Virus record (IMG/VR): IMGVR_UViG_3300005527_000306
Span: 1 to 23,112 of that record
Origin: a virus
Direction: 5' to 3' (one strand)
DNA: 23,112 nt
Shown here in pieces: positions 1 through 22,904 of this stretch. The translations under genes and the position numbers were made by a program. The notes beneath the pieces are model-generated. The model worked only from the letters and a program-made list of their open reading frames with translations. It searched no databases and was not told the DNA's origin. How positions within the stretch are numbered: the stretch's first letter is position 1; each line of letters opens with the position of its first letter.

Positions 1-527
1 TCCAGTTGCCCGGCCACAAGGTCCGCTCCAGACCCACCATAAAAAACAAACTCAAACTCGACCGGCGTTGGCGCAGAGCCAGCAACGATCAGCCCGTTCC
101 TTGCAAGATTTTCGGGTGCCGTCGCGCTGTAGATGGTGAACGAAGACGAGCCAGAAGTAAACGACGACGTAAGAAAACTTCCGCCCACAATCAGTGTTGA
201 AAGATTGACCTCGACATTTGTTATTGGCCCACCAGTAAAGAACGTCGGCACAACAAAGCGCAGCCCGGTTGCGACGCTGTCCGCCGGTATCGAAGCGACC
301 TCGACCATCGCTACCCCACTGACGTGCGAAACAAGACTGGGCGTGTCGAACGCGGTCGTGTATTTCACCCACCGTTCCACGTTGTCGGGCAGGACGCCAG
401 CAGCGGGAACCGCACCTTCAAGCACCGCGAGACGCCTTTCCTTGGCGTTGATCTCGTCTTGGATCGAGATGAACTGCCGTTGTACCCCCCCTGGGCTAGT
501 GTCCCCGGAAAGGCGGAAGTAACTCAT
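1..527 (-). CDS. Probable virion appendage or tail protein, N-terminal part (runs off the window)
   Basis: An open frame starts at ATG 527-525 and stays open to the window edge, giving at least 175 residues. Its start overlaps the stop of the internal core protein D gene as ATGA, so it is probably translationally coupled. Residues about 15-37 form a short charged, heptad-like segment (QRQFISIQDEINAKERRLAV), possibly a trimerising coiled coil. The rest is rich in Val, Ser, Thr and Gly and looks like beta-structure. Codon use differs from most of the window, with many third-position T and A codons (TCT, TTT, ACT, GTT, ATA), a pattern seen in exchangeable host-recognition genes. Its place after the internal core genes is where T7-like phages often carry tail fibre or other structural genes. 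I recognise no specific family, so an appendage role is inference from position and composition. Confidence 0.7.
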   Translation of the reverse strand, partial: MSYFRLSGDTSPGGVQRQFISIQDEINAKERRLAVLEGAVPAAGVLPDNVERWVKYTTAFDTPSLVSHVSGVAMVEVASIPADSVATGLRFVVPTFFTGGPITNVEVNLSTLIVGGSFLTSSFTSGSSSFTIYSATAPENLARNGLIVAGSAPTPVEFEFVFYGGSGADLVAGQL

Positions 528-3500
528 GGCCGCTCCTCCCTCTTGGACTGCTTGGGCAAGTCTCGGGTGAGGTAGTTGATGATTCCATCGACACCCATCA
601 CGCGGGGCACCCACAGCGCACCCTTGAGGTCGCGGACGTTCTGCTGGCTGAAGTCGTAGTTCGGGTTGATCGGCCCAAAGATTGCGTCTTTAGAACGCCA
701 CGCAGACCTTGCCCAGTCGAACGTCGGGTTGTCCAGCAGCGTGCCGCGCTGCCCGGTCGTGCGGGCGAAACTGAACACCTCGTCAAACCCGAACATCGGG
801 GCCACGGTATCGACCGCCGATGGAAGCAGCGACGAGTACGCCGCCTGCGAGAACCCGGCTTTGATGAGGCCCTCAGCCGAGAGGTACTTCTTCTGCCACT
901 CCAGCCGCTTGTCGGGTGGGAGTTCCAGCGATCGAAGGTAGCCGACCACTGCAAACCCAGCAGCAGCACCGATCGAACTGATCCCCCACTGCATGAACGC
1001 CGCCTTGTCGGCCATGGCGACGTTGTAGAGCAGTTTGCCCTCCCACGCGCCGAAGATGAACGTCCGCAACTGGGCGATCACCTTGCCCATCTCGGTGGTC
1101 ATCCAGCGGGCGTATGCCGCGGGGTTGTTCTGCTGCACCAGCCGGCTGGTTTGGAGCTGTAGCGCGTTGCGGAAGGCCGACCCTGCACCCACGTCGTCCC
1201 ACGTCGAGAAGTCGAGCTGCACGTTGCCCAGTTCGTCGCGGGGGGCCTTGCGGAGTTGGACGGCGATGCGCTCGAGCATGGCCTCGTCCTGGATGCCCAG
1301 CCCGAGCCGACGCTGGGTGCTGAGTTTCTTGCCCGACCACACCTTCGTGGCCACCCCATCTATATCAACCTCGATGTACTTGCCGCTGCTGGCGATGTCC
1401 GCCCAGCGGTTCAAGACCGACAGGCCCGCCACACGCTCGATCGCCGTCTGCCCTGGAGCCGTCAGCGAGACATTGGACGCCAGCCGCGTGCCCTTGGAGA
1501 TGAGTTCCTCGACCTTGTTGGTGCGGGCCATCTCGTCTGCAAAGCCCGGCAGCACGCGCTTGGCCGAGTAGGACTCGCCCAGACCAGTGAAGTAGGCCAT
1601 CTCCCGAAGGCTCTGGTCCTTGAGTTGGCCGTTCTCAAGCCGCTTGAACATGCTCGCCACGTCGGGCATGTACTTGGTGACCAGCGCGGGGCCAACCTCG
1701 GCCATTGCCCCGACGATCTCGAAGGAGTTGCGGATGCCTGTCGTCGCGTTGCTCATCAGCCGGATGTAGTTGAGGTTCCTGATCGCCCGCATCGTGCGGA
1801 CAGTCGCCGTGTTCTCTGTCAGCGGCACGCCCTGGGCGAGTTTCAGGCCAATCTCGATCTTCGACAAGTCGCGGTTGATTGCTCGCTCGGAGTACCCGGG
1901 CGTCGCCTCGGCCTCATTGCGCAGAGCCTTGAGCAGGTCGCCAGTCGTCTCAATCTTCTTGCCGGTGATCTGCGAGGCGTTGCGGTAGACCTCCGAGACC
2001 GCAGCCTGGCCCAGCACCCGGCGGGTGTAGACGCTGGCGATCGCCTCGGCGTTGTTCTCCAGCAAGTCCTCGATGCCCAGCGTCGTCTCGTTCCCGGCGA
2101 GGTCCACAACGTCCTGGCTGTGCGTCTCGTCCAGGGCCGTGCGGCGCCGTGCCTGCGACATGACCCCACGCTTCTCGGGGTCGCGCCCGAGTTTCTCGGA
2201 GATCGCCAGGATTTGACGCTCGCTGACCTGACCGCCGACCTGCTCACGGAGCATCGCGGCGATCTCCACCGGGTCAGAGAGTTCAATCGCGGCCACGGCG
2301 TCGCCGGTGTTCTTGGTGCCGACCTTCTTGAGCCAGTTCTTGGCAATGATCGTGGCCAGTTCGTCGGCGGTGATGCCGTCGCTCTTGCCCAGCCGGAATC
2401 CGCCGATCTTGTTGTATCCCTTGATGACGGCGTTCCGCACGACATCCAGCACCGTGTCCTCGTCAAAGCGGGCGTAGGCGTCGTCGATCTTGTTGCGGCT
2501 GCCCATCCGGGTGAAGTAGGTGTCGCTCTGGTCGAAGCGGTCAAACCCCTTGACCCCGTGCCGGGCCGCAAGGCTGTGGTTTTCGGCAAACAGTGCCCGG
2601 AGCCGGTCGGCGGCGTTGTTGACCTCGGCGTTGTCGGTGTATTCACCGCGCGGGCGGCGGACGGCGCGGCCAACCTCCTCCATGAACTGGTCGCGCGGGA
2701 CGGGTTCGACGCCGGACTCTCGCGCCTTGGCGATGTGCCGGGCGTAAGTCGCGTCGTTCTCGCTAAAGAACCTGCTGACGATGCCTTGCGTGCGGCCCTC
2801 AGCCCACTGCGGGGCGTCCAGAACCACCGCGCGGCCCTTGCGGGGGATCAGGTCGGTCAAAACCATCGCCCCAACGTCGCGCACGGCCCCGACAGGGGAC
2901 TGGCCGACGTGAGAACCCATGCTGAAACGTCCTGTCAGCATCACCGTGTCGGTCCCGGGGACCATGAGCTGAGCGCCGAGCGTGCTCTTGGGCATGTCCC
3001 GCACGCTGCTGACGTCAAAGTCGCCGATCTGCTTGGGCGGAAGTTCGATTTCTGGCACCGCAGGCGCGTCCTCACCGGGTGGAACCTCGGTAAACCGCCT
3101 TTCGGCAAACGAAACCGGGGCCTTGTCGGGTGCCGGGGCTGGCCCGTCGGCCATGTCGGCAAGAACCTCGTCGATGACCGGCTTGTTGACCGCCTCGATC
3201 TCCGCCGTGCGGGCCGTCTGGTCGATCTGGTCCTTGAAGTAGAGTTGCTCTTCCTTCGTGGCGATTGCAACGGGGTCGAATCCGTCGTCCTTGGCCTGCT
3301 TCTTGATGGCCTCCCACTGGGCGTCCTTGACCATCCGACGCCCCACGGCGTCGCGGGCCTGGGCGTAGCGGGTGATCGACCCCAGCCCCGCCGTAAGCCC
3401 GCCAAAGGCTAGTTGCGTGCCGGCGTTGACCAGCAGCTCGCTGTTGGAAACGTCCTCACCAGCGACCCGAGCGCCCAAGTCAGCGGCGATCGACCCTGCA

Positions 3501-4168
3501 GCGCCGCCACCGCCCATGCCGACGGCCTGCTTGACGAACGTCTGGCCCGCAAGGTGCCCACCGAGGCCGAAGCCGAAGCCCGTCAGCCCAGCCGTGGCGA
3601 TCTGGCGGTTGGTTACGCGGGGGTCTGAGACCGATCGAACACCCTCCAGAGTGGCAAAGGTGCCCCCGGCGACCAGCCCAGACCGCACAGCAAGCCCAGC
3701 CCGGCCCACGTTCGCGGCCATGCCCGCGCCACCAGTAAGCATACCCGCCGCCAGCATGAACGGGTTGGTCAGGGTCTCTCCGATCGTGATGGCCTTGCCC
3801 AGCGTGCCCGCGTCGCTGAGAACCTGCTCCTGCTTGGCCAGGTCTAGGTAACGCACGCGCAGGTACTCGGCGTGCTTCTGACTCACGGCACTGGCAAACC
3901 CCGTGCGGAAGTGGGGGGGGATGCCGTCGCTGAGGCGGTCAAACTCCGGCTGAGTGAGTTGGTACGTCGGGTCGCGGTCAAACGTCTGCTCGAACAGGGT
4001 GGCCCCCAGTGAGCCGGTGAAGCCGTTGTAGTACGCCGCCGAGAGTTTGTCCCCGAGGTCCATCTTGGCGTTCCTGGCCTCGGCCTCGGCGTCGAGTTGA
4101 CGCTGGCGGGCGATGGCATCCGCGTTGGCCTCGAAGGTCGGCGGTGCCGTCAGGATGGTCTCAGACAT
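524..4168 (-). CDS. Internal virion (core/ejection) protein D, T7 gp16-like, without transglycosylase domain
   Basis: The product has 1214 residues; T7 gp16 has 1318. In T7 this protein forms part of the internal core, is ejected first and builds the channel across the cell envelope. The start ATG lies 3 nt after the core protein C stop, behind a GGGGGAGA ribosome site. The best family evidence is near residues 1000-1050, where SRLVQQNN, ARWMTTEMGKVIAQLRTF and a following Gly-Trp-Glu-Gly-Lys stretch match the conserved late segment of gp16 proteins. A hydrophobic Ala/Gly-rich stretch at about 125-185 and another at about 1060-1085 could enter membranes. The N-terminus begins directly with a segment resembling the part of T7 gp16 that follows its lytic transglycosylase domain, and no SLT-type catalytic Glu motif is seen. 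The family call is strong; the lost domain rests on reading alone. Confidence 0.88.
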   Translation of the reverse strand: MSETILTAPPTFEANADAIARQRQLDAEAEARNAKMDLGDKLSAAYYNGFTGSLGATLFEQTFDRDPTYQLTQPEFDRLSDGIPPHFRTGFASAVSQKHAEYLRVRYLDLAKQEQVLSDAGTLGKAITIGETLTNPFMLAAGMLTGGAGMAANVGRAGLAVRSGLVAGGTFATLEGVRSVSDPRVTNRQIATAGLTGFGFGLGGHLAGQTFVKQAVGMGGGGAAGSIAADLGARVAGEDVSNSELLVNAGTQLAFGGLTAGLGSITRYAQARDAVGRRMVKDAQWEAIKKQAKDDGFDPVAIATKEEQLYFKDQIDQTARTAEIEAVNKPVIDEVLADMADGPAPAPDKAPVSFAERRFTEVPPGEDAPAVPEIELPPKQIGDFDVSSVRDMPKSTLGAQLMVPGTDTVMLTGRFSMGSHVGQSPVGAVRDVGAMVLTDLIPRKGRAVVLDAPQWAEGRTQGIVSRFFSENDATYARHIAKARESGVEPVPRDQFMEEVGRAVRRPRGEYTDNAEVNNAADRLRALFAENHSLAARHGVKGFDRFDQSDTYFTRMGSRNKIDDAYARFDEDTVLDVVRNAVIKGYNKIGGFRLGKSDGITADELATIIAKNWLKKVGTKNTGDAVAAIELSDPVEIAAMLREQVGGQVSERQILAISEKLGRDPEKRGVMSQARRRTALDETHSQDVVDLAGNETTLGIEDLLENNAEAIASVYTRRVLGQAAVSEVYRNASQITGKKIETTGDLLKALRNEAEATPGYSERAINRDLSKIEIGLKLAQGVPLTENTATVRTMRAIRNLNYIRLMSNATTGIRNSFEIVGAMAEVGPALVTKYMPDVASMFKRLENGQLKDQSLREMAYFTGLGESYSAKRVLPGFADEMARTNKVEELISKGTRLASNVSLTAPGQTAIERVAGLSVLNRWADIASSGKYIEVDIDGVATKVWSGKKLSTQRRLGLGIQDEAMLERIAVQLRKAPRDELGNVQLDFSTWDDVGAGSAFRNALQLQTSRLVQQNNPAAYARWMTTEMGKVIAQLRTFIFGAWEGKLLYNVAMADKAAFMQWGISSIGAAAGFAVVGYLRSLELPPDKRLEWQKKYLSAEGLIKAGFSQAAYSSLLPSAVDTVAPMFGFDEVFSFARTTGQRGTLLDNPTFDWARSAWRSKDAIFGPINPNYDFSQQNVRDLKGALWVPRVMGVDGIINYLTRDLPKQSKREERP

Positions 4169-6996: not shown

Positions 6997-9900
6997 TTAG
7001 TTGATGGTGCGGTCGATCAGGAAACCCAGCGACGTGATCGTCATGGGCTTGGCCGTGATGCTCTCGATGATGATTCGGGTGTCCCGCGCGTCCCCGCCGA
7101 CATTGGCCTCGAACTCGCCCTCTTCTTCGATCTGTGCCCCGGATGCCGAGTAGGGTGGCCCGGGGACCATCGTCCGCACACGGTCTGCACGGTTGCGCTG
7201 CACGCACCGCACGCGGTAAGAGCCGGAGTCCTTGTGCCCGACGATCACCGAGAGTATTTGGGCGTAGGAACCGCTGACCACGCGCCCGTTGCCGTCGCGC
7301 ACAAAGGGCGGTGTCGGCTCATGGAACGACACCATCGGCCGGCCCAGCACGCAGTCTGTCGCGCTGTGGTCACCCGTGCGTGTAACCGTCGTGCCCGGGG
7401 ACGTGGTGGCTACCAGCTCGGTCCCGTCGGGCTTGACGATCGCGGTGATGCTCGTGTCGGTCAGGCCACCGGGCAGCGTCCACGTCGTCGTGCCCGCCGC
7501 AAACACGCCGCGAATGACCATCACCCGGTCCAGGCACGGCACGTAGGGCGTGCCGTTCTCGGCCACAGGGACGCTCAGGCTGTGCGATTCCAGGGTGTAC
7601 TGACTGCCCCTCTTGACGATCATCATCAGCGTGCGGTCCAGCACCGCCATCGACCGAACGGTGTTGCCGGCGCCGAACTCCCAGACCGACCACGCCGACT
7701 GGAGTTTCTCAGAGCCGTTGTAGAAGTACGAGTAGGTGTAGATCACCGAACCGTCTGTCGGCAGCACCAGGACCATGTTGGAGCCGGGTGCTACGTCGAT
7801 CGACTTGATCGTCGGCAGCAGAAGTCCGGGCACATGCGAGCCGACGTTGTTGGCGAACAGGAGCGTCTCGGTGTCGCTGTAGGCGTACTCGTAGAGCGTC
7901 CCGCTGGAGGCCATCGCCCCAGCGAAGAAGACCCGAGCATCAGACGCCACGGGCCGGACGCCCGGGGCGCTCTTGTACCGCGTGCCCATCGTGATCGAGG
8001 CGGACGACGGCGTGAGGTCTCCGACCGCGCTGAAGTCAAACTGCTGCCCGGCCTTGCTGAACAGCGTCAGCACGCTGCGGATGGGGACGGCGAAGTCCAG
8101 GTCTACGACCGATTCCTTGTCCCCGACCACCGACCGCTGGATGGGATCGTCATCGGTGATGTTGGCCGGGTTCTCGACGAAGAACTGGTAGTAGTCGTTG
8201 TTGGCAGAGCAAAGCACGCGCTCGCCGCCGATCAGCAACAGCCGGTTGTCAAAGAAGCCAATGTCGGCGATCGGGCGACCCGAGGCCAGCAGCTCAGGTA
8301 GCGGGTTGCTCTCGGGCGATCCGTCAGGGCGGAACCCCCATTCCAACTCCCGCAGCACAAACGTCGGCGGGTGGGAGTACGAAGCGTTGAGGTACAACTG
8401 ACGGCGGTTGTTGCGGACAGTCGCGTCCAGCACGCCCTGCCAGATGATTACCTCGTCGATGGTGCCCGAGAAGGTGCTGCCGATGTTCCCCGCCGACGGC
8501 TGGCCAGGCGTCGATAGGACCGAGAACGGGCCAACGCCGGTCTCCGTGAGCGGGTAATCGGTGCCGTCAACGGACAGTTGCAGCGTCCCGCCCTGGCCTG
8601 AGTGGGTAACCACAACCTCGTGCATCCCCGCGGCGGTGATCGGGGTTGCGATAGCCGTGGCAAACTCGCGCCCGTTGACGCTGACGGTCATAAACCCGTT
8701 GGCAAAGCCAGAGGGTCCCTTGTTGGCGTAGACGGCGAACGCCACTGAAGTGAGGACGCCGCCGAAGCCCCGGCTCACCACCGCCGTCAGCCCCAGAATC
8801 GTGCCGATTGCGCCGGTGTTCACCTTGGCCTTGCACTCGAAGGTAAACCCGTTGGCGACCGCAGCCTCGAACCCATCCAGGGCAGGCAGGGTTACGCTCT
8901 GGGTCGTGCCGTTGAAAGTAACAGCGGTGTTGGTGTCCCCGGCGATCGTGCCCGCAACACCAAGCGTTGGCGCGGCGACGTAGGTGCCGTTGGCTCCCTT
9001 CATCTGCTCGACGGCGACGGTGCCGGACGTATCGCCCAGTCTCCACCACCAGAGCGGTCGCATGGATATCGTCATGGCTGACCAGCCACCGGGCCAGACG
9101 CCACCGAGGGCAGTGCGGATCAGAGCCACGGGCATCGTCTGAGGGTTGAGTTGGGCCGTGGCCTGACCAGGGGGGGGAACCCTGACCCAGCGGTCCTCGG
9201 GCGTTGAGGTCGCCAAGTCAGACAAGCCAGTGCCAGCCGCAATCGTCATGCCAGTCAGCCGGAACGGACGCCCTGCCGGTGCCGTGGCCAGGGCGTAGAC
9301 CTCGGGGTCCAACGGGGCCAGCACCGCGCCAGAGGATGGAAACGACGCTGACTTGCCAGACCACGGGCTTGTGATCGTGAAGTACCCACGATCCGCACCA
9401 GCCCCGCCAGCGGTGTTCATCGAGGTAAACGACACCAGCGCGTTGACCGCGCCAGCGTTGCGGATGGCCCGTTGCAGCGCAGCCGCCACGTCTTGCAGGT
9501 CCGCCACACCGGCTTGGTTCATGTCTACCCGGAAGTCCACCGAGTCGCCGATGTCGATGAACGCCACGGTGCCGGTGTTGGCCGGGGGAACAGCGTACTC
9601 CAGCGTGATCGAGTCGTTGTTGACCCGGCTGGTGATCCGCGCGTGCGTCGGGGTAAAGCCCGTGCCCGCTGTGATGTTGATGAACTTGTTAGGCTCGAAC
9701 GTCCAGTTGGTAAACGCCCCGGTTTTGGTCAGGGTCTTGGTGGCCTGGACCCATGTGCAGTTAGTCTGCGAACTCAGGAACGTCGAGAAGAAGACCCGAG
9801 CGCCCATCGGGTTGTAGTCCCGGTTGAGCCAGATCGCCACCCCGGACCAGTTGGAGTCCATCTCATCCATCCGCATCGTTGCGAACGTGCTCAGGCCCGG

Positions 9901-10455
9901 CTTGTACCGCCAATACCCCGGTGCCGCAGCAGGCGAGTCGTCTGTCGCCCGCAGTGTGGCGTTGGGTGCCGGGGTCCGGGACGTGAGTATCTCGTATGTC
10001 CGGCACTCGCGGTCGAGCGTGTAGGAATCGCTGCTCTTGGATGCCGGTACGACCGTTGTGTTCAGCAGCAGCGTGTAGTCCCCGATCGACACACACCGGA
10101 TCGACGCTGCGGGGCTGCTTCCAAGGTAACTGGATGCCCGACCGGCGTAAACCACACCCTTGACGCCATCTTTGGTGCGGATAGAGACTACCCCGGCGCC
10201 GTACAGCAGCCCGTACTGCTCCACCGAGTCGCGCATGATGGGGTGAATCCGAACGTCAGCGTCCGCAGCAAGGCCCGCAAACTCGTCCAGCACCGCGAGG
10301 AACCGCGAACCCCAACGCCTGACGACGCCGTTAGCCGGGTCGTAGATGACGTTCTTGGCGTCCTGGGCCTGGCCGGGGTAGCGGTTGCGGGCAGGCTGAC
10401 GGCTGATCCCCCCGGTGATCCCGTCGAAGGTGAAGCGTGCTTGTTCAGTAGCCAC
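6997..10455 (-). CDS. Tail tubular protein B (nozzle), T7 gp12-like, with inserted LamG domain
   Basis: The product has 1152 residues, far longer than the 794 of T7 gp12. I place the start at GTG 10455-10453 because GGAGGAA lies just upstream; this gives an 11-nt overlap with the tail tubular A stop. The N-terminus (ITGGISRQPARNRYPGQ) matches the gp12 signature, where T7 has KGGISQQP followed by RYPDQ. The phrase SIGDYTLLLN near residue 140 and the blocks GFFDNRLLLIGGERV and SANNDYYQFF after residue 730 are also gp12-like. Between about residues 465 and 690 sits a separate domain that starts with three consecutive Trp (469-471) and ends with GTIDEVIIWQGVLDATVRNN, the usual pattern of a concanavalin-like LamG domain. 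The protein forms the tail nozzle, and the inserted lectin-like domain could bind glycan on the cell surface (inference). An 8-C tract occurs in the VPPPG region near residue 425. Confidence 0.95.
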   Translation of the reverse strand: MATEQARFTFDGITGGISRQPARNRYPGQAQDAKNVIYDPANGVVRRWGSRFLAVLDEFAGLAADADVRIHPIMRDSVEQYGLLYGAGVVSIRTKDGVKGVVYAGRASSYLGSSPAASIRCVSIGDYTLLLNTTVVPASKSSDSYTLDRECRTYEILTSRTPAPNATLRATDDSPAAAPGYWRYKPGLSTFATMRMDEMDSNWSGVAIWLNRDYNPMGARVFFSTFLSSQTNCTWVQATKTLTKTGAFTNWTFEPNKFINITAGTGFTPTHARITSRVNNDSITLEYAVPPANTGTVAFIDIGDSVDFRVDMNQAGVADLQDVAAALQRAIRNAGAVNALVSFTSMNTAGGAGADRGYFTITSPWSGKSASFPSSGAVLAPLDPEVYALATAPAGRPFRLTGMTIAAGTGLSDLATSTPEDRWVRVPPPGQATAQLNPQTMPVALIRTALGGVWPGGWSAMTISMRPLWWWRLGDTSGTVAVEQMKGANGTYVAAPTLGVAGTIAGDTNTAVTFNGTTQSVTLPALDGFEAAVANGFTFECKAKVNTGAIGTILGLTAVVSRGFGGVLTSVAFAVYANKGPSGFANGFMTVSVNGREFATAIATPITAAGMHEVVVTHSGQGGTLQLSVDGTDYPLTETGVGPFSVLSTPGQPSAGNIGSTFSGTIDEVIIWQGVLDATVRNNRRQLYLNASYSHPPTFVLRELEWGFRPDGSPESNPLPELLASGRPIADIGFFDNRLLLIGGERVLCSANNDYYQFFVENPANITDDDPIQRSVVGDKESVVDLDFAVPIRSVLTLFSKAGQQFDFSAVGDLTPSSASITMGTRYKSAPGVRPVASDARVFFAGAMASSGTLYEYAYSDTETLLFANNVGSHVPGLLLPTIKSIDVAPGSNMVLVLPTDGSVIYTYSYFYNGSEKLQSAWSVWEFGAGNTVRSMAVLDRTLMMIVKRGSQYTLESHSLSVPVAENGTPYVPCLDRVMVIRGVFAAGTTTWTLPGGLTDTSITAIVKPDGTELVATTSPGTTVTRTGDHSATDCVLGRPMVSFHEPTPPFVRDGNGRVVSGSYAQILSVIVGHKDSGSYRVRCVQRNRADRVRTMVPGPPYSASGAQIEEEGEFEANVGGDARDTRIIIESITAKPMTITSLGFLIDRTIN

Positions 10456-11278
10456 GTTCTTCCTCCAGGTTCGAGTAGCCTGCCCGGCGAGAACGGTTAC
10501 CACGCATCGCCCGAGCCTCAGCCGTCTCGTGGCTGTTGAACCTGCGCAGGTCAGAGTCCTCGTCCTCGGCCTCCATCCGGGCCTTGTCGCGGTTGTCGGT
10601 GATCGTCGCCTCGTTGGAGATCGAACCCTTCTTGTAACGCTGGAAGGCCATAGCAGCCTCGATAGCGATGTACCGGGCGAGTTTGTTGCTGAGTTGATCG
10701 AAGGAAATGGTCTGCGCCAGCGTCAGTTTGACCAGCCCGGTGAACACAAAGGTCCGGTCGGCGTCGTTGAACAAGCGACCACCCCGCGGCGTGATGCGGA
10801 GAGGCTCATCAGACGACTGCCTGACCGTGATCCAGTCCGTGCCCACCCGCAGGAAGCCGTCGGTTAAGGCTGTGCGAGCCGACCCAGCACGGGTGGCACC
10901 GCTGGCCGAGCCGGTGAGCGTCTGGCCCCCGGTGAAGGCCACCGTGCCACGGTTGGCCAGGAAGATCGTCGATCCCACGACGGCCTGGACGATGCCCTTA
11001 GCACCGCTGACGGACTCGCCCACGCTCTCGCCGACCAGGAAGGAGTACGCCGCGCCAGGACCAGTGCCGACGGTAAACGCGATCGAGTCGGTGGGCGGGT
11101 AGACCTCAACGGCTGGGTCGGTATTCTGCGCCCACCCGCGCTCGAGAATCCTGATCCGCTCACGGTCAAGGATCGACTCGGCCTCACCGGCATCGCTGGT
11201 CTGCCCGGTGTCGAGCGCAAGCACCGGGGCAAGCCTCATCTCAGTCAGCATGAGGTTGATGCCTTCGAGTGTGGTCAT
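10445..11278 (-). CDS. Tail tubular protein A (gatekeeper/adaptor), T7 gp11-like, with inserted beta domain
   Basis: The product has 277 residues against 196 in T7 gp11. The start ATG has GGAGG five nt upstream. The N-terminal helical part (INLMLTEMRLAPV, then ESILDRERIRILERGWAQN, residues 7-52) matches the gp11 layout of a first helix, a second helix and the RGW motif. The C-terminal part after residue 140 resumes the family pattern, including helices and DNRDKARMEAEDEDSD. Residues about 68-134 are extra: short Gly/Val/Thr/Ser-rich strands with repeated G-x-V-x-G steps and a Ser-Gly-Ala-Thr turn, which looks like a small beta-sandwich insertion of the sort seen in longer gp11 relatives. In the virion the protein forms the ring that joins the portal to the nozzle, and the nozzle gene follows with an 11-nt overlap. 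Confidence 0.93.
   Translation of the reverse strand: MTTLEGINLMLTEMRLAPVLALDTGQTSDAGEAESILDRERIRILERGWAQNTDPAVEVYPPTDSIAFTVGTGPGAAYSFLVGESVGESVSGAKGIVQAVVGSTIFLANRGTVAFTGGQTLTGSASGATRAGSARTALTDGFLRVGTDWITVRQSSDEPLRITPRGGRLFNDADRTFVFTGLVKLTLAQTISFDQLSNKLARYIAIEAAMAFQRYKKGSISNEATITDNRDKARMEAEDEDSDLRRFNSHETAEARAMRGNRSRRAGYSNLEEERGY
10460..10466 (-). promoter_or_regulatory. Ribosome binding site deciding the GTG start of tail tubular protein B
   Basis: GGAGGAA on the minus strand is followed after 4 nt by GTG at 10455. The next candidate start upstream, GTG at 10503, has no comparable site and would add 16 residues with no counterpart at the gp12 N-terminus. The site lies inside the last codons of tail tubular protein A. 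Confidence 0.8.
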
Positions 11279-11302: not shown

Positions 11303-11374
11303 TAGCGACGGTGGGAATCGAACCCACGACCTCTGGGTTATGAACCCAGCGAGATACCGCTTCTCTACGCCGCG
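11303..11374 (-). tRNA. Initiator-type tRNA-fMet (anticodon CAU)
   Basis: A complete cloverleaf folds on the minus strand. The acceptor stem has six pairs at positions 2-7, with C1 opposite U72 unpaired. The D stem is GAGA/TCTC, the anticodon stem CTGGG/CCCAG, the anticodon loop TTCATAA (CAU at 11342-11340), and the T arm GTGGG-TTCGATT-CCCAC. The three marks of bacterial initiators are all present: an unpaired position 1-72 beginning with C, the A11-U24 pair in the D stem, and three consecutive G-C pairs at 29-31/39-41. U72 replaces the usual A72. The D loop is short (7 nt). The discriminator is A73 and the 3' CCA is not encoded (TTT follows), so a host enzyme would add it. It begins 7 nt after the stop of the 787-aa gene, and 24 nt separate it from tail tubular protein A. 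An elongator tRNA-Met or tRNA-Ile(CAU) is unlikely given these marks. Confidence 0.93.
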
Positions 11375-11381: not shown

Positions 11382-13745
11382 CTATCGAACGTCGGAATCA
11401 AGCCTCTGCCCAGCCAGGATTGCCGCCCCGCTGGGCTGGAACAGGATGCTCGGCACGGGCCGGGCCGCGCCCGGAAAGATCGACTGCATGAGCGTCAGAG
11501 ATCCGTAACTGCCAGATGGGATCAGGGTAATTCCAACGCCCGTCCCAGGCGTGCCGGGCGCACCGATGAAGGCGACGGACGAAAGCGGCGTGATCGGCGC
11601 AAAGAAGAGGTTGTTCAGCGTGTTTTGGTTGTAGGTCTGTGCAAGCCGGTTCAACAGTGCCTGCCCTGCGTTGAGTGCAGCCCACATCGCACCTCCTTGT
11701 GCAAAGGTGTCAGTTGTTGTACCCTGAACGGCCACGGGTTCGGCATAAAACACCCTATTTCCAGTAGAGATCAGGGGGCCGATGATGCTCACCATCGACC
11801 CAACCCAGTTGTCAAGGAACGCTTGCCGTGTAGTATTGCTTATACCCATGACACTGATGTTGGTGTGCAAGTAGCACGGTATGAATATGTCCCATCCGCG
11901 CAACTCTGTCAGCACCCGACCGTGGGAGCCAGCGAAGTCTGATGTAGTAGTGCTAGAACCCCTACCGAGCAGCGTCCACCAGATAATGTCCGGCGTGTTT
12001 GTGTTGGCCGGCTTGCTGCTGCGAAACCCGTTGGGGAAGTTGTTAGCGAACCAACCGACAGAGAAATCTTGTGCCCAGTTGCCAGGGATCGACGCGGCGG
12101 GCGTAAGTCCACCGCCGATGCTGCCGCTTTCCGTGTAGTTGTCGCCAATGAACGCCGCCGGGACGCCTGCGGCAACAAGCCCGGCATCCATTGCGATCGC
12201 GCTGCCAAATGTGTACGTTGCCGTGGCAACGCCGGGGTCCAGGCCGATTGGCCAGGTCTGGTTCAAGCGACCAGCAGCAAGGATGGCCCGGCCTCCAACA
12301 TTCTGCGCAAACAGGCTTGTCAGATCAACCAGCGCGTACCGCATCTCGCCAGTGGTTTTGTTGAACCCGAGATAGATGCCGAACCTGATATGTGATGGGT
12401 ATGCCCCCGAAGCGTCTCGCAGACCCGCAACGTCGCAGAGGTAGCGTGCGTTAGCCGCGGGGCCTTCCTGGAGGATGCTGACGTTCGTCGTGCCCGTGGG
12501 AACGACGCTCACCGACGCCATGACCGTGCCATTCCTGCCAGAGCCGGGCCGCATGATCGAGTAAGTTGCGCTGCACGTATTGGGCACAAACTCCATCGGC
12601 CACCAGACCCACGACCAGCCGTTGAGGCTCGGCACCTGTCCGATATCACCCTCAACGCCAGACCCGTTGCTGGTATAGGTCCGAGTGATGTTCCCGTTGG
12701 CAGCACCAGAGGCGAGCCACCTCGCACGGAAGGGGTTGTTACCGCTGGCCGTGTAGTTTGTGTACGTCCACGTCGGCGACCCGCTCAGGTTCTCGATGCC
12801 CATGCGGCTCGCGTCGGGCAGGGCGGCGGTCGTGGCCAGCGCGCTCGGCTCCCAGGAGTAACTTGTCAGGTTGCTCGGTGGGCCGTTGAACGTGTCGCGC
12901 GCAAACCACCCGGCATTGACCGTCGAGGTGATGGCGGGGTAGATGCGGACGCCAAGGGGTGTTCCAGGACCGACGTTTACACTGTTCGCGTTGTTAGCGG
13001 TCCATACCCACAGCCTGCCTGTTGTGTTCCCGAGCACACCGAAGCCGGTTGTCGCGTTAGGGATGTCCGCCGTGATCGCGCCGGCAAACCTGCCGTCAAT
13101 CGCAAAACCGATGTAGCCTGCGCTGGTGTAGCGAACAAAGACGGTGATGCGGTAGATGCGGTTGAACTCCAACTGCGCAGTACCGGTGCCGCTGCCGACG
13201 TACTGGTGGGTCCCGTTGAGAACGACCGTAACAGACCCGCCCACCGTCAGAGTTACGGCGACGCCTGAGACGTTGCCAACCGCGTCTTTGCGGGCAGTGA
13301 ACGCCAGCACACCCTCCCTAGGGGACGTGCCAACGGTCAGCCGGAGAAGTTCGAGGTTGTTGTGCGTGCCCGCCACAAGCGAGGCTTGGGTAGCCGTGAA
13401 CATCACGTTGATCGACTCGGTGGCGATCAGGTTCGCGTCGGCACCATTGAACGGAGGCGTCGCACCGGCCGGGTTCAAGAACTGGAACGTCGCCGCGGAG
13501 TTGCTGTTGTACTGGATGTACTTGGATGTGCTGTCGCTGCCAAAGACGTACAGCGGCGCGATGGAGAACAACCCCGTGTTCCCAGAACTCACGGCTGTCC
13601 CGTCGGCAACACCAGCCCAAGCCGACGGCACGATGTTGGCGTTGACCACCACCTGCGCCCCGGCACGGGCAGGCCCGAGCAAAGCCACCGCTGCAACACC
13701 GATGACAGTGAAAAGCCGACCGATCAGACCCGTCTTGATACTCAT
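11382..13745 (-). CDS. Large secreted protein: signal peptide, lectin-like beta domains, SGNH-like region
   Basis: The product has 787 residues. Its start overlaps the preceding stop as ATGA. Residues 1-30 form a textbook Sec signal peptide: basic start with K4 and R10, hydrophobic core FTVIGVAAVALL, then an A28-G-A30 cleavage site before Q31. Residues about 90-270 look like a concanavalin-type beta-sandwich (YRITVFVRYTSAGYIGFAID followed by GRFAG), and a second beta-rich region covers about 280-560. Residues about 580-720 have an SGNH-hydrolase-like rhythm: a hydrophobic strand IIWWTLLG (about 587-594), a second strand WDIFIPCYLHTNIS (about 617-630), a helix TRQAFLDNWVGSMVSIIG, then a strand RVFYAEPV. 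The catalytic Ser, the GxND motif and the DxxH motif are not in recognisable form. It could be a secreted carbohydrate-binding protein, an exported esterase relative, or an unusual fibre. Several A/T-ending codons hint at a different origin. The function is unknown. Confidence 0.8.
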   Translation of the reverse strand: MSIKTGLIGRLFTVIGVAAVALLGPARAGAQVVVNANIVPSAWAGVADGTAVSSGNTGLFSIAPLYVFGSDSTSKYIQYNSNSAATFQFLNPAGATPPFNGADANLIATESINVMFTATQASLVAGTHNNLELLRLTVGTSPREGVLAFTARKDAVGNVSGVAVTLTVGGSVTVVLNGTHQYVGSGTGTAQLEFNRIYRITVFVRYTSAGYIGFAIDGRFAGAITADIPNATTGFGVLGNTTGRLWVWTANNANSVNVGPGTPLGVRIYPAITSTVNAGWFARDTFNGPPSNLTSYSWEPSALATTAALPDASRMGIENLSGSPTWTYTNYTASGNNPFRARWLASGAANGNITRTYTSNGSGVEGDIGQVPSLNGWSWVWWPMEFVPNTCSATYSIMRPGSGRNGTVMASVSVVPTGTTNVSILQEGPAANARYLCDVAGLRDASGAYPSHIRFGIYLGFNKTTGEMRYALVDLTSLFAQNVGGRAILAAGRLNQTWPIGLDPGVATATYTFGSAIAMDAGLVAAGVPAAFIGDNYTESGSIGGGLTPAASIPGNWAQDFSVGWFANNFPNGFRSSKPANTNTPDIIWWTLLGRGSSTTTSDFAGSHGRVLTELRGWDIFIPCYLHTNISVMGISNTTRQAFLDNWVGSMVSIIGPLISTGNRVFYAEPVAVQGTTTDTFAQGGAMWAALNAGQALLNRLAQTYNQNTLNNLFFAPITPLSSVAFIGAPGTPGTGVGITLIPSGSYGSLTLMQSIFPGAARPVPSILFQPSGAAILAGQRLDSDVR

Positions 13746-15204: not shown

Positions 15205-16239
15205 TCAATAGAGCGCGACGCTCAGGGCCTTCCAAGGCTGATGGATGCCCATGCCCCACCGCTTGCGGTGCTTGACCAGCGTGGTCTCGTTGTCCTCGTT
15301 GAACACGGCCTTCGCCCACTCGCCCTTGCGCATGATGGCGACAGGACCCTCGTCCTCGCTGTCCTTGCACGCGCCGACCATGATCGGCCTGCCGGTCGTG
15401 ATCGAGCCGCCGGAGAAGTCGCCGTTGTACTTCGTCAGGTCGGTCGTTACGTTCGAGTTGGGCAGGTGCTTGGTGAAGACGATGTTCCAGCCCATGAAGT
15501 TCTCGACCTTGCGGTTGACGATCGGGCTGTCGCCGACGGGGATGAAGTCCTTGCTCGTCACCCGCGTACCGGCAAGCAAGATCGTCTTGACCGACGGGTC
15601 GGCGAACATATAACGACAGTTTGGGTCGGTCGGCCAGTTCATTCGGTCGGCCTGCTCAGACGCATCAGAGAGGTAGCCGATGAGCGTCTCAGCCGAGGTG
15701 TTGTTGCGCGGCCAGTTGACCGTGTCGGTCAGGTCAACGGAAGCCACGTCGCGGGTCAACTGGATACCGCCGGAGTGGACCCCAGCGATGGCAGGCGCAC
15801 GCGACGCCAGTACCAGCACCCTGAACCCCACGTAGTCCTCGTACTCGGCGTGCTGCCGGGCGAGGTCTTTGGCGCGGGGCTTGATCGCATCCCACGGCAC
15901 ATCCTCTTCGTCCTCGACCGCCACGCGGCGGGCAAGGTTGATCGGATCGTCGATCGTCAGGTCCGTGTAGTCCTGAACGTCGGCCTGGGCCTCGATCAAC
16001 TGGCCAGGGCCACGGCGCGGGGGCACGCCGTTGTAAGCGAGGCTGGCCCCGCCGAAGAAGGGCATGCGCTTACTGAGCAGCCCCTTCTCGTTGCTGATCT
16101 CGTTGATGATGCCGGAGGCGACCAGAAGGTTCGCGTCGCGGTACTGCTCGGCCATGTAGGTTTCGAGCTGGGTAAAACTCAGGGCGCGCTCGTTGCCACG
16201 GGCAAGCGCTGCGCGCGATAGGACAATGGGATCGGCCAT
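15205..16239 (-). CDS. Major capsid protein, T7 gp10A-like
   Basis: The product has 344 residues, next to the 345 of T7 gp10A. It forms the icosahedral shell with an HK97 fold. The start ATG has GGGAG about 7 nt upstream. The sequence follows the gp10 pattern: an N-terminal segment leading into ANLLVASGIINEISNEKG, a charged E-loop-like region around TIDDPINLARRVAVEDEEDV (residues 92-113), CRYMFADPSVKTIL in the middle, and a C-terminal KHRKRWGMGIHQPWKALSVA that matches the conserved Arg/Tyr-Gly-Met-Gly-x-x-x-Pro ending of T7-like capsids. It lies downstream of scaffold and the 128-aa gene and just before a strong terminator. I saw no slippery site or open frame for a 10B-type frameshifted minor form. 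Confidence 0.95.
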   Translation of the reverse strand: MADPIVLSRAALARGNERALSFTQLETYMAEQYRDANLLVASGIINEISNEKGLLSKRMPFFGGASLAYNGVPPRRGPGQLIEAQADVQDYTDLTIDDPINLARRVAVEDEEDVPWDAIKPRAKDLARQHAEYEDYVGFRVLVLASRAPAIAGVHSGGIQLTRDVASVDLTDTVNWPRNNTSAETLIGYLSDASEQADRMNWPTDPNCRYMFADPSVKTILLAGTRVTSKDFIPVGDSPIVNRKVENFMGWNIVFTKHLPNSNVTTDLTKYNGDFSGGSITTGRPIMVGACKDSEDEGPVAIMRKGEWAKAVFNEDNETTLVKHRKRWGMGIHQPWKALSVALY

Positions 16240-16910: not shown

Positions 16911-17837
16911 TTACCTCTTTCGTGGTGGGGGAGTCGTTCGCCATTGACGGGGGGAAGCCTCGACGCGCTGGCGCAGGGCGTCGTCTTTGTACCAGTTGCC
17001 TTTGCCGTGGACCTTGTCGGCCTCCCAGATCGCCTCCCACATCAGCGTGGAGTCGCCGAACGGGGTGGCACTGTCGCCACCAGCGGCGACGGACTGCTGG
17101 ACCAGAGGTTTAGCACCGCTGACCTCCTGGTTGTAATCGAACAGCAGGGCCTTGATGGTCGGCAGGGCCTTCTTTGTGTCGGCCAGCGCGGCGTTGATCT
17201 CGGCGTGCTGATCGGGCGGGATTTTGGACGTTGCCCACGTCAAGAGCGTGCCGAGCTGCTGCTCGCCGCCAGCGATCTTGATGGCCTCGGCGCGGGTCTG
17301 TGCGGCCTGGGCCTTCATCTCCGTCTCGCGGGCGCGGTAGGCGACCAAATCCGCCTGGGCCGTCTGGGCGATGAGTTTCTTGGGGAAGCCGTACTTCTTG
17401 TGGATCGCGTCGATCTGCTCGTCGGTAAGTTTGCCGTCTTTGAGCAGTTGGGCCTTGATCTCCTCTTGCTTGAGGCCAGCGCCAGTGATGATCCCCGTGA
17501 AGTCCTCGGGTTCGGCACCGGGCGGCGGGGGCGCGGCGAGTTTGAGCGTCGCGTCGGCTTCGGGTGCATCAGCACCGGGCGCTGGCGTCGCTGGCTTGTC
17601 GGCCTTGCCACCGCCGATCTTGGCCTGTGCCTCCCTGTAGGACTGGCTGAGGGCTTTGAGAGATTCCTCGGGCGTTGCTCGGATGAACTTCTTGTCCACA
17701 TCGGCGTGCCACGCCGGGGGCGTTTCGGGGGCCTTGCCGTCCCCGGTGTCGGGCGGCGGCGACTCCGCGGGGGTCTTGTCCGCTGGTGTGGTGCCGCTGG
17801 CTGGGGGGGCGTCGGTCGCGCTGTTGGTCTCGGGCAT
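16911..17837 (-). CDS. Capsid assembly scaffolding protein, T7 gp9-like
   Basis: The product has 308 residues; T7 gp9 has 307. It is hydrophilic throughout. The first 105 residues are Pro-, Ala- and Asp-rich and likely disordered. A gp9-like core follows, with GLKQEEIKAQLLKDGKLTDE and a predicted helical region at about 140-230. The C-terminal part FGDSTLMWEAIWEADKVHG and WYKDDALRQRVEAS resembles the end of gp9 proteins, and the last residues (RQWRTTPPPRKR) are basic, as needed to bind the inside of the shell. It starts 9 nt after the portal stop and precedes the capsid gene by one gene. Confidence 0.88.
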   Translation of the reverse strand: MPETNSATDAPPASGTTPADKTPAESPPPDTGDGKAPETPPAWHADVDKKFIRATPEESLKALSQSYREAQAKIGGGKADKPATPAPGADAPEADATLKLAAPPPPGAEPEDFTGIITGAGLKQEEIKAQLLKDGKLTDEQIDAIHKKYGFPKKLIAQTAQADLVAYRARETEMKAQAAQTRAEAIKIAGGEQQLGTLLTWATSKIPPDQHAEINAALADTKKALPTIKALLFDYNQEVSGAKPLVQQSVAAGGDSATPFGDSTLMWEAIWEADKVHGKGNWYKDDALRQRVEASPRQWRTTPPPRKR

Positions 17838-17846: not shown

Positions 17847-19439
17847 TTACTGGGCGAGGGAGTTGTTCTGTGTTGCGGCTGCCTGCGCCACGTTGCCGGC
17901 CACGTCGATGGCCTTGTTGACGGCGGCGCCGCGTGCGGCTTGGGCCTCGTACTCGGCTCGCTCTTGCTCCAGCATCGCCCGGCTCTTGACCAAGCCCGGC
18001 TCGTCGATGTTGGAGGACCGTGCCAGCACGTCCACAAGCACGCCAGTGTCAATCTTGCTCATCGCGGTCTCGCCGAGTTGGGCGACAGCCGCTGCGAAAC
18101 TGAGCGTCTCGCGGCCTTTGGACATCTTCGACAGCGACGACACGCCCGTGAGCAGTTCGAGCCGGGTGGCCTTGGGAGTCAGCGGGGGGGTCAGGCGTTG
18201 CTTCTCGGCCAGGAACGCCACGCGGGCGATAATCCCGCCCTGCAAACGCTCGGCGATGGGGCCGTAGAACCCGCCCAGGATGCCCTCGACCTCGGCGGCG
18301 ACCTGCTGCCATGAGACGCTCGACCGCATGGCGTCCCCGGACTGGCTCAGGTTGGCAGTCGTCAGCATGTTCTTGGAGAGGCGATCACTCACCCGCGCGA
18401 TGGCCGACTCGACGATCGAGAAGTCGGCAAGGCGGTTGAGTTGCACCGCGGCGAAGTCTTGCACCTGACCACCAACGACCTTGGCACGGATTCGTGAGCC
18501 GGATGGTTTGGCAAGGTCTGTGTCCTTGATTGCGCTGGTGTAGTCTGTGGCCCACAGGAACTTGCTCGCGGCGTCGGCAAAGTCCAGCACCTTCATCGAC
18601 AGCACGTCCAGCGAGAGCAGGTCGCCCCGCAGCGCGTCGATAAACGCCCGTCCGTAATGCTCGCCGGTGACTTCCTCGAAGGGGACGGAGACCATCGGCG
18701 TGATGCGCTCGTCGCTCTCGGCCACGGTCCACCCGTTGACCTCGATGGTCTGGACCCACACCTTCGACCACGGCTGCCACTCGATGTGCGTGAACTGGTC
18801 GATCCGCCGGTCCCGGGCCGACTTCTTCTTGAGAACCTCGGGCTTGAGTTTGGCCGTCTTGAGTTGCTTCTCGGTTAGCGTCATCGCGTCGATGGACTCT
18901 TTGACCGTGTGGGAGATCACATCGAACGACTCGTCCCGCTCGGTTACGTAGCGGTCGCGGCGGTGGACCTTGAGGCGGAAGTCATCAACGACCTGCACCA
19001 GCGTGTCGCCGGTGATGAGCAGGTGGCTGATGGCCGTGCGGACGCGGGAGTTGAACCCGTAGGCCCGGCGGTTGTTCTCGTCGCTCAGGTTGGCCGACTG
19101 GAGCAGCGACAGCAGCAGCACGTCCCGCCAGAACAGGCGGTCGGCCATGTCCTGCTTCATCGTCGGATCGACTTCGGGATTGGTCTGAATCTCAGGCGCA
19201 AGCGCGGTTGTGAACCACGGCTGGGGGGGGAACATGGCCACCAGGATGCGGCCCTCGATGTTCGACATGCCCATCGCCCCGTCGCTCTGGTAGTTCTGGG
19301 GGAGTTTGGAGTCCTTGTTGTGGCCCTCCGCCGGTAGAACCCAGGGCTTCGTCAGCCGGGCGTTCTCGCGCGCTTCGTTGAGGCTGGTGGTCCGCGAGTT
19401 GTGCGCGGCCGACCAGTGCGCGGCGATGTTGGACTTCAT
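17847..19439 (-). CDS. Portal (head-tail connector) protein, T7 gp8-like
   Basis: The product has 530 residues; T7 gp8 has 536. It forms the ring at the capsid vertex through which DNA passes. The family layout is clear: an early region LPQNYQSDGAMGMSNIEGRI (residues 46-65), FPPQPWFTT, the SHLLITGDTLV stretch, the signature GEHYGRAFIDALRGDLLSLD in the middle, then SVSWQQVAAEVEGILGGFYG and PIAERLQGGI in the last third, corresponding to the Arg-x-Thr-Ala-Glu-Glu region of connectors. The C-terminus is Ala/Gln-rich and helical. The start overlaps the stop of the 67-aa gene as ATGA. An 8-C tract encodes the FPPQ segment. Confidence 0.95.
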   Translation of the reverse strand: MKSNIAAHWSAAHNSRTTSLNEARENARLTKPWVLPAEGHNKDSKLPQNYQSDGAMGMSNIEGRILVAMFPPQPWFTTALAPEIQTNPEVDPTMKQDMADRLFWRDVLLLSLLQSANLSDENNRRAYGFNSRVRTAISHLLITGDTLVQVVDDFRLKVHRRDRYVTERDESFDVISHTVKESIDAMTLTEKQLKTAKLKPEVLKKKSARDRRIDQFTHIEWQPWSKVWVQTIEVNGWTVAESDERITPMVSVPFEEVTGEHYGRAFIDALRGDLLSLDVLSMKVLDFADAASKFLWATDYTSAIKDTDLAKPSGSRIRAKVVGGQVQDFAAVQLNRLADFSIVESAIARVSDRLSKNMLTTANLSQSGDAMRSSVSWQQVAAEVEGILGGFYGPIAERLQGGIIARVAFLAEKQRLTPPLTPKATRLELLTGVSSLSKMSKGRETLSFAAAVAQLGETAMSKIDTGVLVDVLARSSNIDEPGLVKSRAMLEQERAEYEAQAARGAAVNKAIDVAGNVAQAAATQNNSLAQ

Positions 19440-20339: not shown

Positions 20340-22904
20340 TTACTGAAAGGCATAAGACTCTTGCTCGATTCCGAGGACGCGCGTGATGTCCAGCGTCCCG
20401 TGCTTTGGCGGCGGCGGAAGAACGACCTCGGGGTACAACGCCGCCCACTCCGCAGCCAGTTCGGCAAGGATGTCGCGCGTGTAGAGCATGACAAGTTGCT
20501 CTAGGACGATCTGCCTGCCGCGCTTGGAGTTGCCCGCGTGGAACCAGAAGTTGTCATGCACCAGCATCATCTCGATGTGCTCGGCACGGCACGCCACCCC
20601 GACCATGTGCGCGTGCGTCGAGTCGAGGCTGTGGATGAAGTTGGCCGCGATCCCGTTGACGTGCTTCTTGACGCGCACCGGGGCCTTCTCGTCCTCGTAG
20701 TCGATGTAGGAGATCTCCTGGAGGACGGTCTTGATTTTCTTGTAGGTGTTCTTGCGGTAGCCCTGGATCACCGGGAACCCGAGCGGGGTTGTCCAGCGAA
20801 CCAGATGCCCAGCCGTGGCGATCCGCAGGGCGCACGCCCGCAGCCAGGCCATGATCTTCGCCGCCACGTAACTGACCTTGGCCAAGCACTTCATCGTGAT
20901 CTTGGCGAGGTACGCAGACCCGCGTGTTACCTCGTCTTGCGTGAGGCCATGCTCGACAATCTCGTCGCGGATTTGCTGCCTGGCACCTGACTCGGTTACG
21001 CCGTAGGTATCAGCGAGAACCGTGGTTTTGAGCGTCTTGCGCTGGATGCACCGCTCGACGACACGCGCGATCGGGACAAACTCCTCGTTGGTCTCAGCCA
21101 TGACTTCCCGCAGGACCATCTCGGAGATGATCGTGTAGGGGTCGTGGATTACTCCGGTCGGCAGCAGGTTGACCGCAGCAGCGCCGATGGGGTCGCGCCC
21201 GAGCATGGCGTAGTGCTGGAGTCCGTTGCACGCCCCATCCCACTGGCATGGCACAAAGCGCCCGATGCCGTCGGGGTCGGCCACGCCACGGCACGCCGCG
21301 ACAAACTGCCAGGGGTTCTCCGCTTGCAGCGCCAGCCCGGACGGCTCGTCGGCCTTGGCGATTCGCTTGATCTCAGGCAGGTTGCTGTCCACCCAGGCCA
21401 CGCGCTCGTGGTACAACTGCTTGTCCACGGGCTTGCCGAACATATTGGCCGCGTGAATCTTGAGGTACCGCAGGCCGTCCGGCCCGGGCCTGATGCCGTT
21501 CTTGAACAGCAGCAGCCCGCGCGAGATATCGTCGCCCTGGTGGTTCAGTTGGGCGGGGATGGCGTACTGCCGGAACCGGAAGTCACCCTGGCAGGGGAAC
21601 CACATCGGCAGCGCGGCGAACCGCTCGGCCACCGTGATCTTGTCGAGGTAGCACCTGCGGTCGGCTGTGCGGCGCCGGTTCTCGGTGGCGTTGACCCGCA
21701 CCTTGGCCTTCCAGTCTTTGAGGTCATCGGGCAGCACCCGCTTCCACCGCTGCCCGCGCGGGGCCGTCTTGCGGTAGCCGTTGGGCTTCGGCACCGGGGG
21801 CAGGTTGTCGGCGTGCGGGACGCCCGCGTGGTTGCCGCCCTGTTTGTAGATCGCCTTCATGTCGTCGAGGGCCTTGGTGTTCACCGCCAGCGGTGTCGAT
21901 TGGAGGCACCAGTGGGCAAAGTGCAGTTCGTCCAGGCGACCATCGCGCGTGCGTGCCGCCAGTTCCCGGCGGAGTTCGGGGCTGGGCTTGGAGACCAGCG
22001 GCGTCCTGATGCGGATGTAACCCCCCGGCGTGTCCCGTGTCGCGGGCATCGGCTCAACGACCATCGGCTGGTACTGCGGGCGCATGAGTTCCCGCGCCGC
22101 GTGGCCCTCGGCGACCAGTTCGATCGCCTCGTCGGTCAACTCAACCATCCCGACGCGGTACTTCTTGCCGGGCACCTTGATCTTCTGGCGACGGAAGGCG
22201 GGCTGGAAGGGCTTGTCGTACCCGTCGGTCGTACACCACTCGATGCACGACCAGAGCAACCGCTCGCCCAGCATGATGCACGCGCGCCGGTGGTCGCTCG
22301 CGTCCGAGAGGTTGCGGCGTGCCCACCAGTTGATCTTCTTGGGCTGGCTCGCGCGGAACCGCTCGACGATCAGGTTCAACAGTTCGTTCTCGTCGGGCAT
22401 GCGCACCTTCGGGTCTGGCCGCTTGCCGCTGGCGATCTCCTCCTTCATCCGGTTGCGGTACCTGCGCCGGGCGTACTTGTCGTGGTCCTTCATCTCGGCG
22501 AACAGCAGCTCGGCCAGCACCGCGCGGCCGATCGCGTGGGTGAGCCGAGCCACGGTGATCCCGTCGGTGTCGGTCAGGCACATGCCGAGGGACTGGTTGA
22601 GTGCGATCACCGCCAGCACGTCGGGGTGAATCTCGTTGAGCACCGGCCTGATGACGGTCGAGTTGTGAATCTTTGCGCCCGCCGCGATCGAGCGTTTGAG
22701 TTTGCTGATGTCGGCGGAGACGGCGCGGAACCAGTGCCCGACCAGACGCTCGCCCGGCTTGAGGTTTGCGCCGTTGCCCTTGTCGGTCTCCTTCTGGGCG
22801 AGTTCGCGGTAACGCTTCACGCCGTCCTCGACTGCGCTGCGCTCCAACTCAAACTCGATGTCGATGAGGCTGCCCGCTATCAACCGCTCGGTGGCTTGGT
22901 GCAT
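20340..22904 (-). CDS. Single-subunit T7-like DNA-directed RNA polymerase
   Basis: The product has 854 residues; T7 RNA polymerase has 883. It transcribes phage late genes from phage-specific promoters. All key residues are in place: Asp556 in motif A (QWDGACNGLQHYAMLGRDP), Lys626 and Tyr634 in motif B (KTTVLADTYGVTESGARQQ), with the same 8-residue spacing as T7 Lys631/Tyr639, and Asp784 in motif C (MLVHDNFWFH). The preceding NFIHSLDSTHAHM block also matches the T7 family. The C-terminus ends YAFQ where T7 ends FAFA, the catalytic foot. The N-terminal domain (residues 1-300) is diverged. The location just upstream of the structural genes is phiKMV-like. The start ATG has only a weak GGA site and lies inside a 29-codon frame that overlaps it. 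Confidence 0.98.
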   Translation of the reverse strand: MHQATERLIAGSLIDIEFELERSAVEDGVKRYRELAQKETDKGNGANLKPGERLVGHWFRAVSADISKLKRSIAAGAKIHNSTVIRPVLNEIHPDVLAVIALNQSLGMCLTDTDGITVARLTHAIGRAVLAELLFAEMKDHDKYARRRYRNRMKEEIASGKRPDPKVRMPDENELLNLIVERFRASQPKKINWWARRNLSDASDHRRACIMLGERLLWSCIEWCTTDGYDKPFQPAFRRQKIKVPGKKYRVGMVELTDEAIELVAEGHAARELMRPQYQPMVVEPMPATRDTPGGYIRIRTPLVSKPSPELRRELAARTRDGRLDELHFAHWCLQSTPLAVNTKALDDMKAIYKQGGNHAGVPHADNLPPVPKPNGYRKTAPRGQRWKRVLPDDLKDWKAKVRVNATENRRRTADRRCYLDKITVAERFAALPMWFPCQGDFRFRQYAIPAQLNHQGDDISRGLLLFKNGIRPGPDGLRYLKIHAANMFGKPVDKQLYHERVAWVDSNLPEIKRIAKADEPSGLALQAENPWQFVAACRGVADPDGIGRFVPCQWDGACNGLQHYAMLGRDPIGAAAVNLLPTGVIHDPYTIISEMVLREVMAETNEEFVPIARVVERCIQRKTLKTTVLADTYGVTESGARQQIRDEIVEHGLTQDEVTRGSAYLAKITMKCLAKVSYVAAKIMAWLRACALRIATAGHLVRWTTPLGFPVIQGYRKNTYKKIKTVLQEISYIDYEDEKAPVRVKKHVNGIAANFIHSLDSTHAHMVGVACRAEHIEMMLVHDNFWFHAGNSKRGRQIVLEQLVMLYTRDILAELAAEWAALYPEVVLPPPPKHGTLDITRVLGIEQESYAFQ

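What the first reader, a model, noticed from the sequence alone, without database searches (positions are those of the whole stretch)
11303..11374. Phage-encoded initiator tRNA with a C1/U72 mismatch
Seen: a full cloverleaf with CAU anticodon, A11-U24, three G-C pairs at 29-31/39-41 and unpaired C1 opposite U72. Known: these features set bacterial initiator tRNA apart from elongators; the 1-72 mismatch permits formylation and resists peptidyl-tRNA hydrolase, and the G-C pairs direct it to the P site. Bacteria use A72, so U72 is unusual. Inference: a phage initiator tRNA could support late-gene initiation, or replace host initiator tRNA cut by a defence nuclease. Its place between a secreted-protein gene and the tail genes puts it in the late transcript.
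Basis: partly seen in the sequence, partly recalled or inferred. Interest (0 to 1): 0.8.

Follow-up and report, generated by a model that had tools for sequence, protein, structure and literature searches.

The report
Phage-carried initiator tRNA, ordinary planctomycete type
A bacterial virus that probably infects planctomycetes carries its own copy of the tRNA that starts every protein; the gene looks real and intact, but such tRNAs occur in many phages, and the supposedly odd end mismatch is the usual form in planctomycetes.

Summary
A full initiator-type tRNA(CAU) lies at 11374..11303 on the minus strand, with C1·U72 unpaired, A11-U24 and three G-C pairs at 29-31/39-41. It sits between a 787-aa gene and the tail-tube gene of a T7-like phage. 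A second public contig overlaps the window at both ends. The closed map is about 43.4 kb and carries an integrase and a repressor, so the phage is probably temperate. This is its only detected tRNA. The same phage, 100% identical, was binned in a Phycisphaeraceae (Planctomycetota) MAG.

The claim that U72 is unusual is wrong for this setting. Among 246 Planctomycetota genomes, 115 have a canonical initiator tRNA with U72 and 18 have one with another base. Initiator tRNAs in phages are also not new: at least 120 viral stretches, annotated phage examples, and a published jumbo phage with the same functional proposal (PMC7760394, PMC9686651).

Most likely it is a working, host-type initiator tRNA made with the late genes, adding to the initiator pool. 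Any role against tRNA-cutting defence is untested. Verdict: new member of a known kind, low interest.

The parts
11303..11374 (-). Initiator-type tRNA(fMet), anticodon CAU, C1-U72 mismatch, A73, no encoded CCA
   Evidence: ARAGORN, Rfam RF00005 63.1 bits, initiator-versus-elongator log-odds +47.3, stem pairs all formed
11382..13745 (-). 787-aa protein with a hydrophobic N-terminal signal-like stretch; its stop codon lies 7 bases before the tRNA
   Evidence: ORF; no Pfam or PHROG match
10445..11278 (-). Tail tubular protein A homologue; starts 24 bases after the tRNA, with GGAGG just before its ATG
   Evidence: PF17212 E 3.1e-20, phrog_446; upstream bases
6997..10503 (-). Tail nozzle (tubular protein B) homologue
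   Evidence: PF25675 E 3.2e-94
524..4168 (-). Internal virion protein
   Evidence: phrog_342 E 1.1e-96
15205..16239 (-). Major head protein
   Evidence: phrog_267 E 2.2e-11
16911..17837 (-). Scaffold / head assembly protein
   Evidence: phrog_1052 E 3.9e-11
17847..19439 (-). Portal / head-tail connector
   Evidence: phrog_449 E 1.2e-66
20340..22904 (-). T7-like RNA polymerase
   Evidence: phrog_414 E 4.2e-148

Best explanation
The gene is a working initiator tRNA of the planctomycete kind, carried by a probably temperate T7-like phage of a planctomycete host. It is transcribed as part of the late gene run and cut out by host tRNA-processing enzymes, and the host adds CCA. Host MetRS charges it, host formyltransferase formylates it (the C1-U72 mismatch, G2-C71, C3-G70, G4-C69 and A11-U24 are all present), and it enters the ribosomal P site through its three G-C pairs. 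Its most likely benefit is a larger supply of initiator tRNA while many phage proteins are being started late in infection. Shown: sequence, fold, initiator features, place, and the match to the planctomycete U72 type. Inferred: transcription, processing, formylation, use, and the benefit.
For: Fold and score. Initiator rather than elongator by log-odds. Aligned with planctomycete initiators, all 20 counted stem pairs form in all 10 sequences; pairs 6-67, 13-22 and 28-42 are changed on both sides in the phage copy and still pair, so the cloverleaf has been kept while the sequence diverged. U72 is the planctomycete norm, and the same phage sits in a Phycisphaeraceae MAG. It fits tightly between two late genes on their strand, with no terminator-like site nearby. 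No other tRNA was found in the two loci that cover the rest of the closed map, so the one tRNA kept is the initiator, which codon compensation does not explain.
Against: No expression data. The sequence differs from every planctomycete initiator read in full here at about 11 or more positions (best 61 of 72 identical), so the host match is of type, not of sequence. Host assignment rests on binning. No relative of this phage with the tRNA at the same place was found: the two distant tail-tube relatives show none in the stretches fetched, and a search of the whole contig behind one of them found none. Conservation among phages is therefore untested.
Confidence: 0.6

Rival explanations
1. Counter-defence: the tRNA replaces host initiator tRNA cut or modified by a defence toxin such as a VapC-type nuclease.
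For: Some VapC toxins cut initiator tRNA, and phage tRNAs have been proposed to restore cut pools (PMC10264068). The initiator is the only tRNA detected in this phage.
Against: The anticodon loop UUCAUAA is standard apart from U at position 32, which also occurs in some planctomycete initiators, so no escape mutation is evident. The same paper reports that enterobacterial phages generally avoid encoding tRNA-fMet where VapC cuts the anticodon. No PIN domain was found in the MAG holding the phage, though the MAG may be incomplete.
Confidence: 0.12
2. Integration-site relic: the tRNA is a piece of a host tRNA gene picked up by integration and imprecise excision, with no function of its own.
For: The phage encodes a tyrosine integrase. 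Temperate T7-like phages such as LUZ100 carry a tRNA-Leu next to the integrase, explained in this way (PMC10134795).
Against: The tRNA is complete and lies about 18.5 kb one way and 23.6 kb the other way from the integrase, inside the late gene run. Near the integrase only a 12-base match was found, and it lies inside a coding frame.
Confidence: 0.1
3. Passenger: a captured host gene kept by chance, neutral for the phage.
For: No related phage with the tRNA was found.
Against: It is well diverged from known planctomycete initiators while all stems still pair. The paired changes could instead have arisen in an unknown donor host.
Confidence: 0.15
4. Elongator Met or Ile2 (CAU) tRNA misread as an initiator.
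For: ARAGORN names it only tRNA-Met.
Against: A11-U24, the three G-C pairs and the C1-U72 mismatch are all present; the log-odds is +47.3 for initiator.
Confidence: 0.02

Closest known systems
Initiator tRNA(fMet) of Planctomycetota
   Same: C1-U72, A73, A11-U24, three G-C pairs, CAU, AGGUC variable loop
   Different: The phage copy has a 7-base D loop, C6-G67, A13-U22, U28-A42 and no encoded CCA; 61 of 72 bases identical to the nearest planctomycete sequences read in full
tRNA-fMet of Stenotrophomonas phage vB_Sm_QDWS359 and the matching tRNA of Variovorax phage VBv52
   Same: Phage-borne initiator-type tRNA with A11-U24 and three G-C pairs; in QDWS359 it lies next to the large-terminase gene
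   Different: C1-A72, CCA encoded; QDWS359 is a Mesyanzhinovviridae phage, not T7-like
tRNA-fMet of Erwinia jumbo phage pEa_SNUABM_47
   Same: Published phage tRNA-fMet, with a published proposal that it supports phage translation starts (PMC7760394, PMC9686651)
   Different: Jumbo phage with many tRNAs; its sequence was not compared here
phiLM21-like Sinorhizobium prophages with tRNA-fMet
   Same: Temperate phages, 15 of them with a single tRNA, four of these tRNA-fMet (PMC12429752)
   Different: Different phage group and host; sequences not compared here

Membership tests
Bacterial initiator tRNA(fMet) | No Watson-Crick pair at 1-72 | tested here: met
   C1-U72
Bacterial initiator tRNA(fMet) | Three G-C pairs at 29-31/39-41 | tested here: met
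   G29-C41, G30-C40, G31-C39
Bacterial initiator tRNA(fMet) | A11-U24 | tested here: met
Bacterial initiator tRNA(fMet) | CAU anticodon and A73 | tested here: met
Bacterial initiator tRNA(fMet) | G2-C71, C3-G70, G4-C69 (minor formylation determinants) | tested here: met
   determinants from PMC9976931 and PMC7949028
Bacterial initiator tRNA(fMet) | Is charged, formylated and used in initiation | not testable with these tools
   Needs biochemistry
Planctomycete type of initiator tRNA | U at position 72 | tested here: met
   115 of 246 genomes with U72 against 18 with another base, by strict patterns; the phage copy itself is one of the 115, since it lies in G001
Integration-site relic tRNA of temperate T7-like phages | Lies next to the integrase gene | tested here: not met
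   About 18.5 kb and 23.6 kb away on the closed map
Phage tRNA that escapes an anticodon nuclease | Anticodon-loop change at the cut site relative to the host | tested here: inconclusive
   Loop UUCAUAA has only U32, also seen in a planctomycete initiator; the host's own initiator tRNA was not found in the MAG

The most novel reading that the evidence does not exclude
A small temperate T7-like phage keeps a single tRNA gene, an initiator, in its late operon because the host inactivates initiator tRNA during infection; the phage copy restores translation starts.
Probability: 0.1. Interest if true: 0.6.

Novelty: new member of a known kind. Interest (0 to 1): 0.22.

Why it matters
It corrects the idea that U72 marks an odd initiator tRNA: U72 is the usual planctomycete form, and C-U and U-U are common in viral initiator tRNAs. 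It adds a clear case of a phage whose only detected tRNA is the initiator, which codon-compensation accounts of phage tRNAs do not cover. Many phage initiators appear in records only as tRNA-Met, so they are probably under-counted.

Tried and rejected
Elongator or Ile2 reading: rejected by features and log-odds. Integration-site relic: considered once the integrase was found, and disfavoured by distance and by the lack of a credible att match near the integrase. Finding relatives through the nozzle, portal and RNA polymerase: gave only 100% identical copies or nothing; the tail-tube protein gave two distant relatives without a tRNA. The MAG's own initiator tRNA: not found by DNA similarity or by the initiator patterns, so no host-phage comparison was possible; a short anticodon-loop pattern gave no more matches than its reversed control and was uninformative. 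Repeats and promoter/terminator scans around the tRNA showed nothing useful. The first paper search on the 1-72 base failed on a term-length rule and was rerun.

Full report
What is there. ARAGORN and Rfam agree on one tRNA at 11374..11303, minus strand. Read 5'->3' it is CGCGGCG UA GAGA AGCGGUA UCUC G CUGGG UUCAUAA CCCAG AGGUC GUGGG UUCGAUU CCCAC CGUCGCU A. Position 1 is C and 72 is U, so the end pair is open; A11-U24, the three G-C pairs, CAU and A73 are present. No CCA is encoded: the next bases are UUUCACCC. A log-odds comparison with 117 initiator-type and 20 other CAU tRNAs places it firmly with the initiators (+47.3; +18.3 outside the columns used to gather the initiators).

Where it lies. 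The window is a virus record of 23,112 bases. Protein families identify a T7-like phage: RNA polymerase, portal, scaffold, head protein, tail tube, nozzle and internal virion protein, all on the minus strand. The tRNA starts 7 bases after the stop codon of a 787-aa gene and ends 24 bases before the ATG of the tail-tube gene, which has GGAGG before it. No terminator-like or sigma-70-like site was found within a few hundred bases, which fits readthrough from late genes but does not prove it.

The whole phage. Another IMG/VR contig (3300028428_000098, 29,249 bases) is 100% identical to the window over 8,832 bases at one end and 140 bases at the other, so the map closes at about 43.4 kb (23,112 + 29,249 - 8,832 - 140). 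The other part holds a tyrosine integrase, an S24-type repressor, a T7-type large terminase, a DnaB-type helicase, an ERF-family protein and a PD-(D/E)XK nuclease, so the phage is probably temperate. No further tRNA was found there. The integrase is about 18.5 kb from the tRNA one way round and 23.6 kb the other.

Host. The tRNA pattern search of bacterial genomes returned one contig, from a Phycisphaeraceae MAG. That contig is 100% identical to window 227-14201, and a second contig of the MAG is 100% identical to window 14331-23112. Phage GC (0.64) is close to the MAG contigs sampled. Binning is not proof of host, but it agrees with the tRNA type.

Is U72 odd? With a strict initiator pattern, 115 of 246 Planctomycetota genomes gave a match ending in U72-A73 and 18 gave a match with A, C or G at 72. 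One of the 115 is the phage copy in the MAG. All 30 planctomycete U72 loci read in full have C1. In viral contigs, 100 readable initiator-type tRNAs give C-A 26, U-U 24, C-U 15 and U-A 10 as the leading 1-72 combinations. Some of those contigs may include host flanks.

Kept under constraint? Aligned with nine planctomycete initiators, every one of 20 stem pairs is formed in every sequence. The phage copy differs on both sides at 6-67 (C-G for G-C), 13-22 (A-U for C-G) and 28-42 (U-A for C-G) (alignment columns 6/68, 13/23, 29/43). The changes may have arisen in the phage or in an unknown donor.

What is known. Annotated cases include Stenotrophomonas phage QDWS359 (tRNA-fMet) and Caulobacter phage CcrSC (noted as tRNA-fMet); others are listed only as tRNA-Met, such as Gordonia phage GodonK. 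Published cases include pEa_SNUABM_47 (PMC7760394), with a proposal that its initiator tRNA supports phage translation (PMC9686651), and phiLM21-like prophages (PMC12429752).

How it probably works. Late transcription, host processing, charging, formylation and P-site entry follow from established initiator-tRNA biology (PMC7949028, PMC9976931) and the features tested here; none of these steps was measured. Extra initiator supply during late synthesis is the simplest benefit. Counter-defence is possible, but the anticodon loop shows no obvious escape change, and no PIN-domain toxin was found in the MAG.

Verdict. It is a new member of a known kind, with an ordinary planctomycete-type end mismatch.

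Noticed in passing
L092:1466-2635 (minus), IMG/VR contig 3300028428_000098: A second head-protein gene of the SU10 type (PF17236, E 2.4e-57) lies between the repressor and the integrase, although the phage already has a T7-like major head protein at window 15205-16239. Whether this is a misjoined contig, an extra gene or a remnant is undecided.
   Followed up: no
window 14201-14363: Three IMG/VR contigs and both MAG contigs of the same phage all break within this stretch, which suggests strain variation or an assembly problem at the lipoprotein-like and neighbouring small genes.
   Followed up: partly
[quoted passage not shown] possibly a second related phage or a shared regulatory element.
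   Followed up: no
window 11382-13745: The 787-aa late protein with a signal-like N-terminus has no Pfam or PHROG match.
   Followed up: no
window 6997-10503: The nozzle protein carries a weak laminin-G/concanavalin-like stretch at residues 532-694 (below Pfam's cut-off), possibly an inserted sugar-binding domain.
   Followed up: no
L086:6959-8149: A 396-aa frame in the early region has a weak sigma-70 region 2 match (below cut-off) in a phage that also has its own T7-like RNA polymerase.
   Followed up: no
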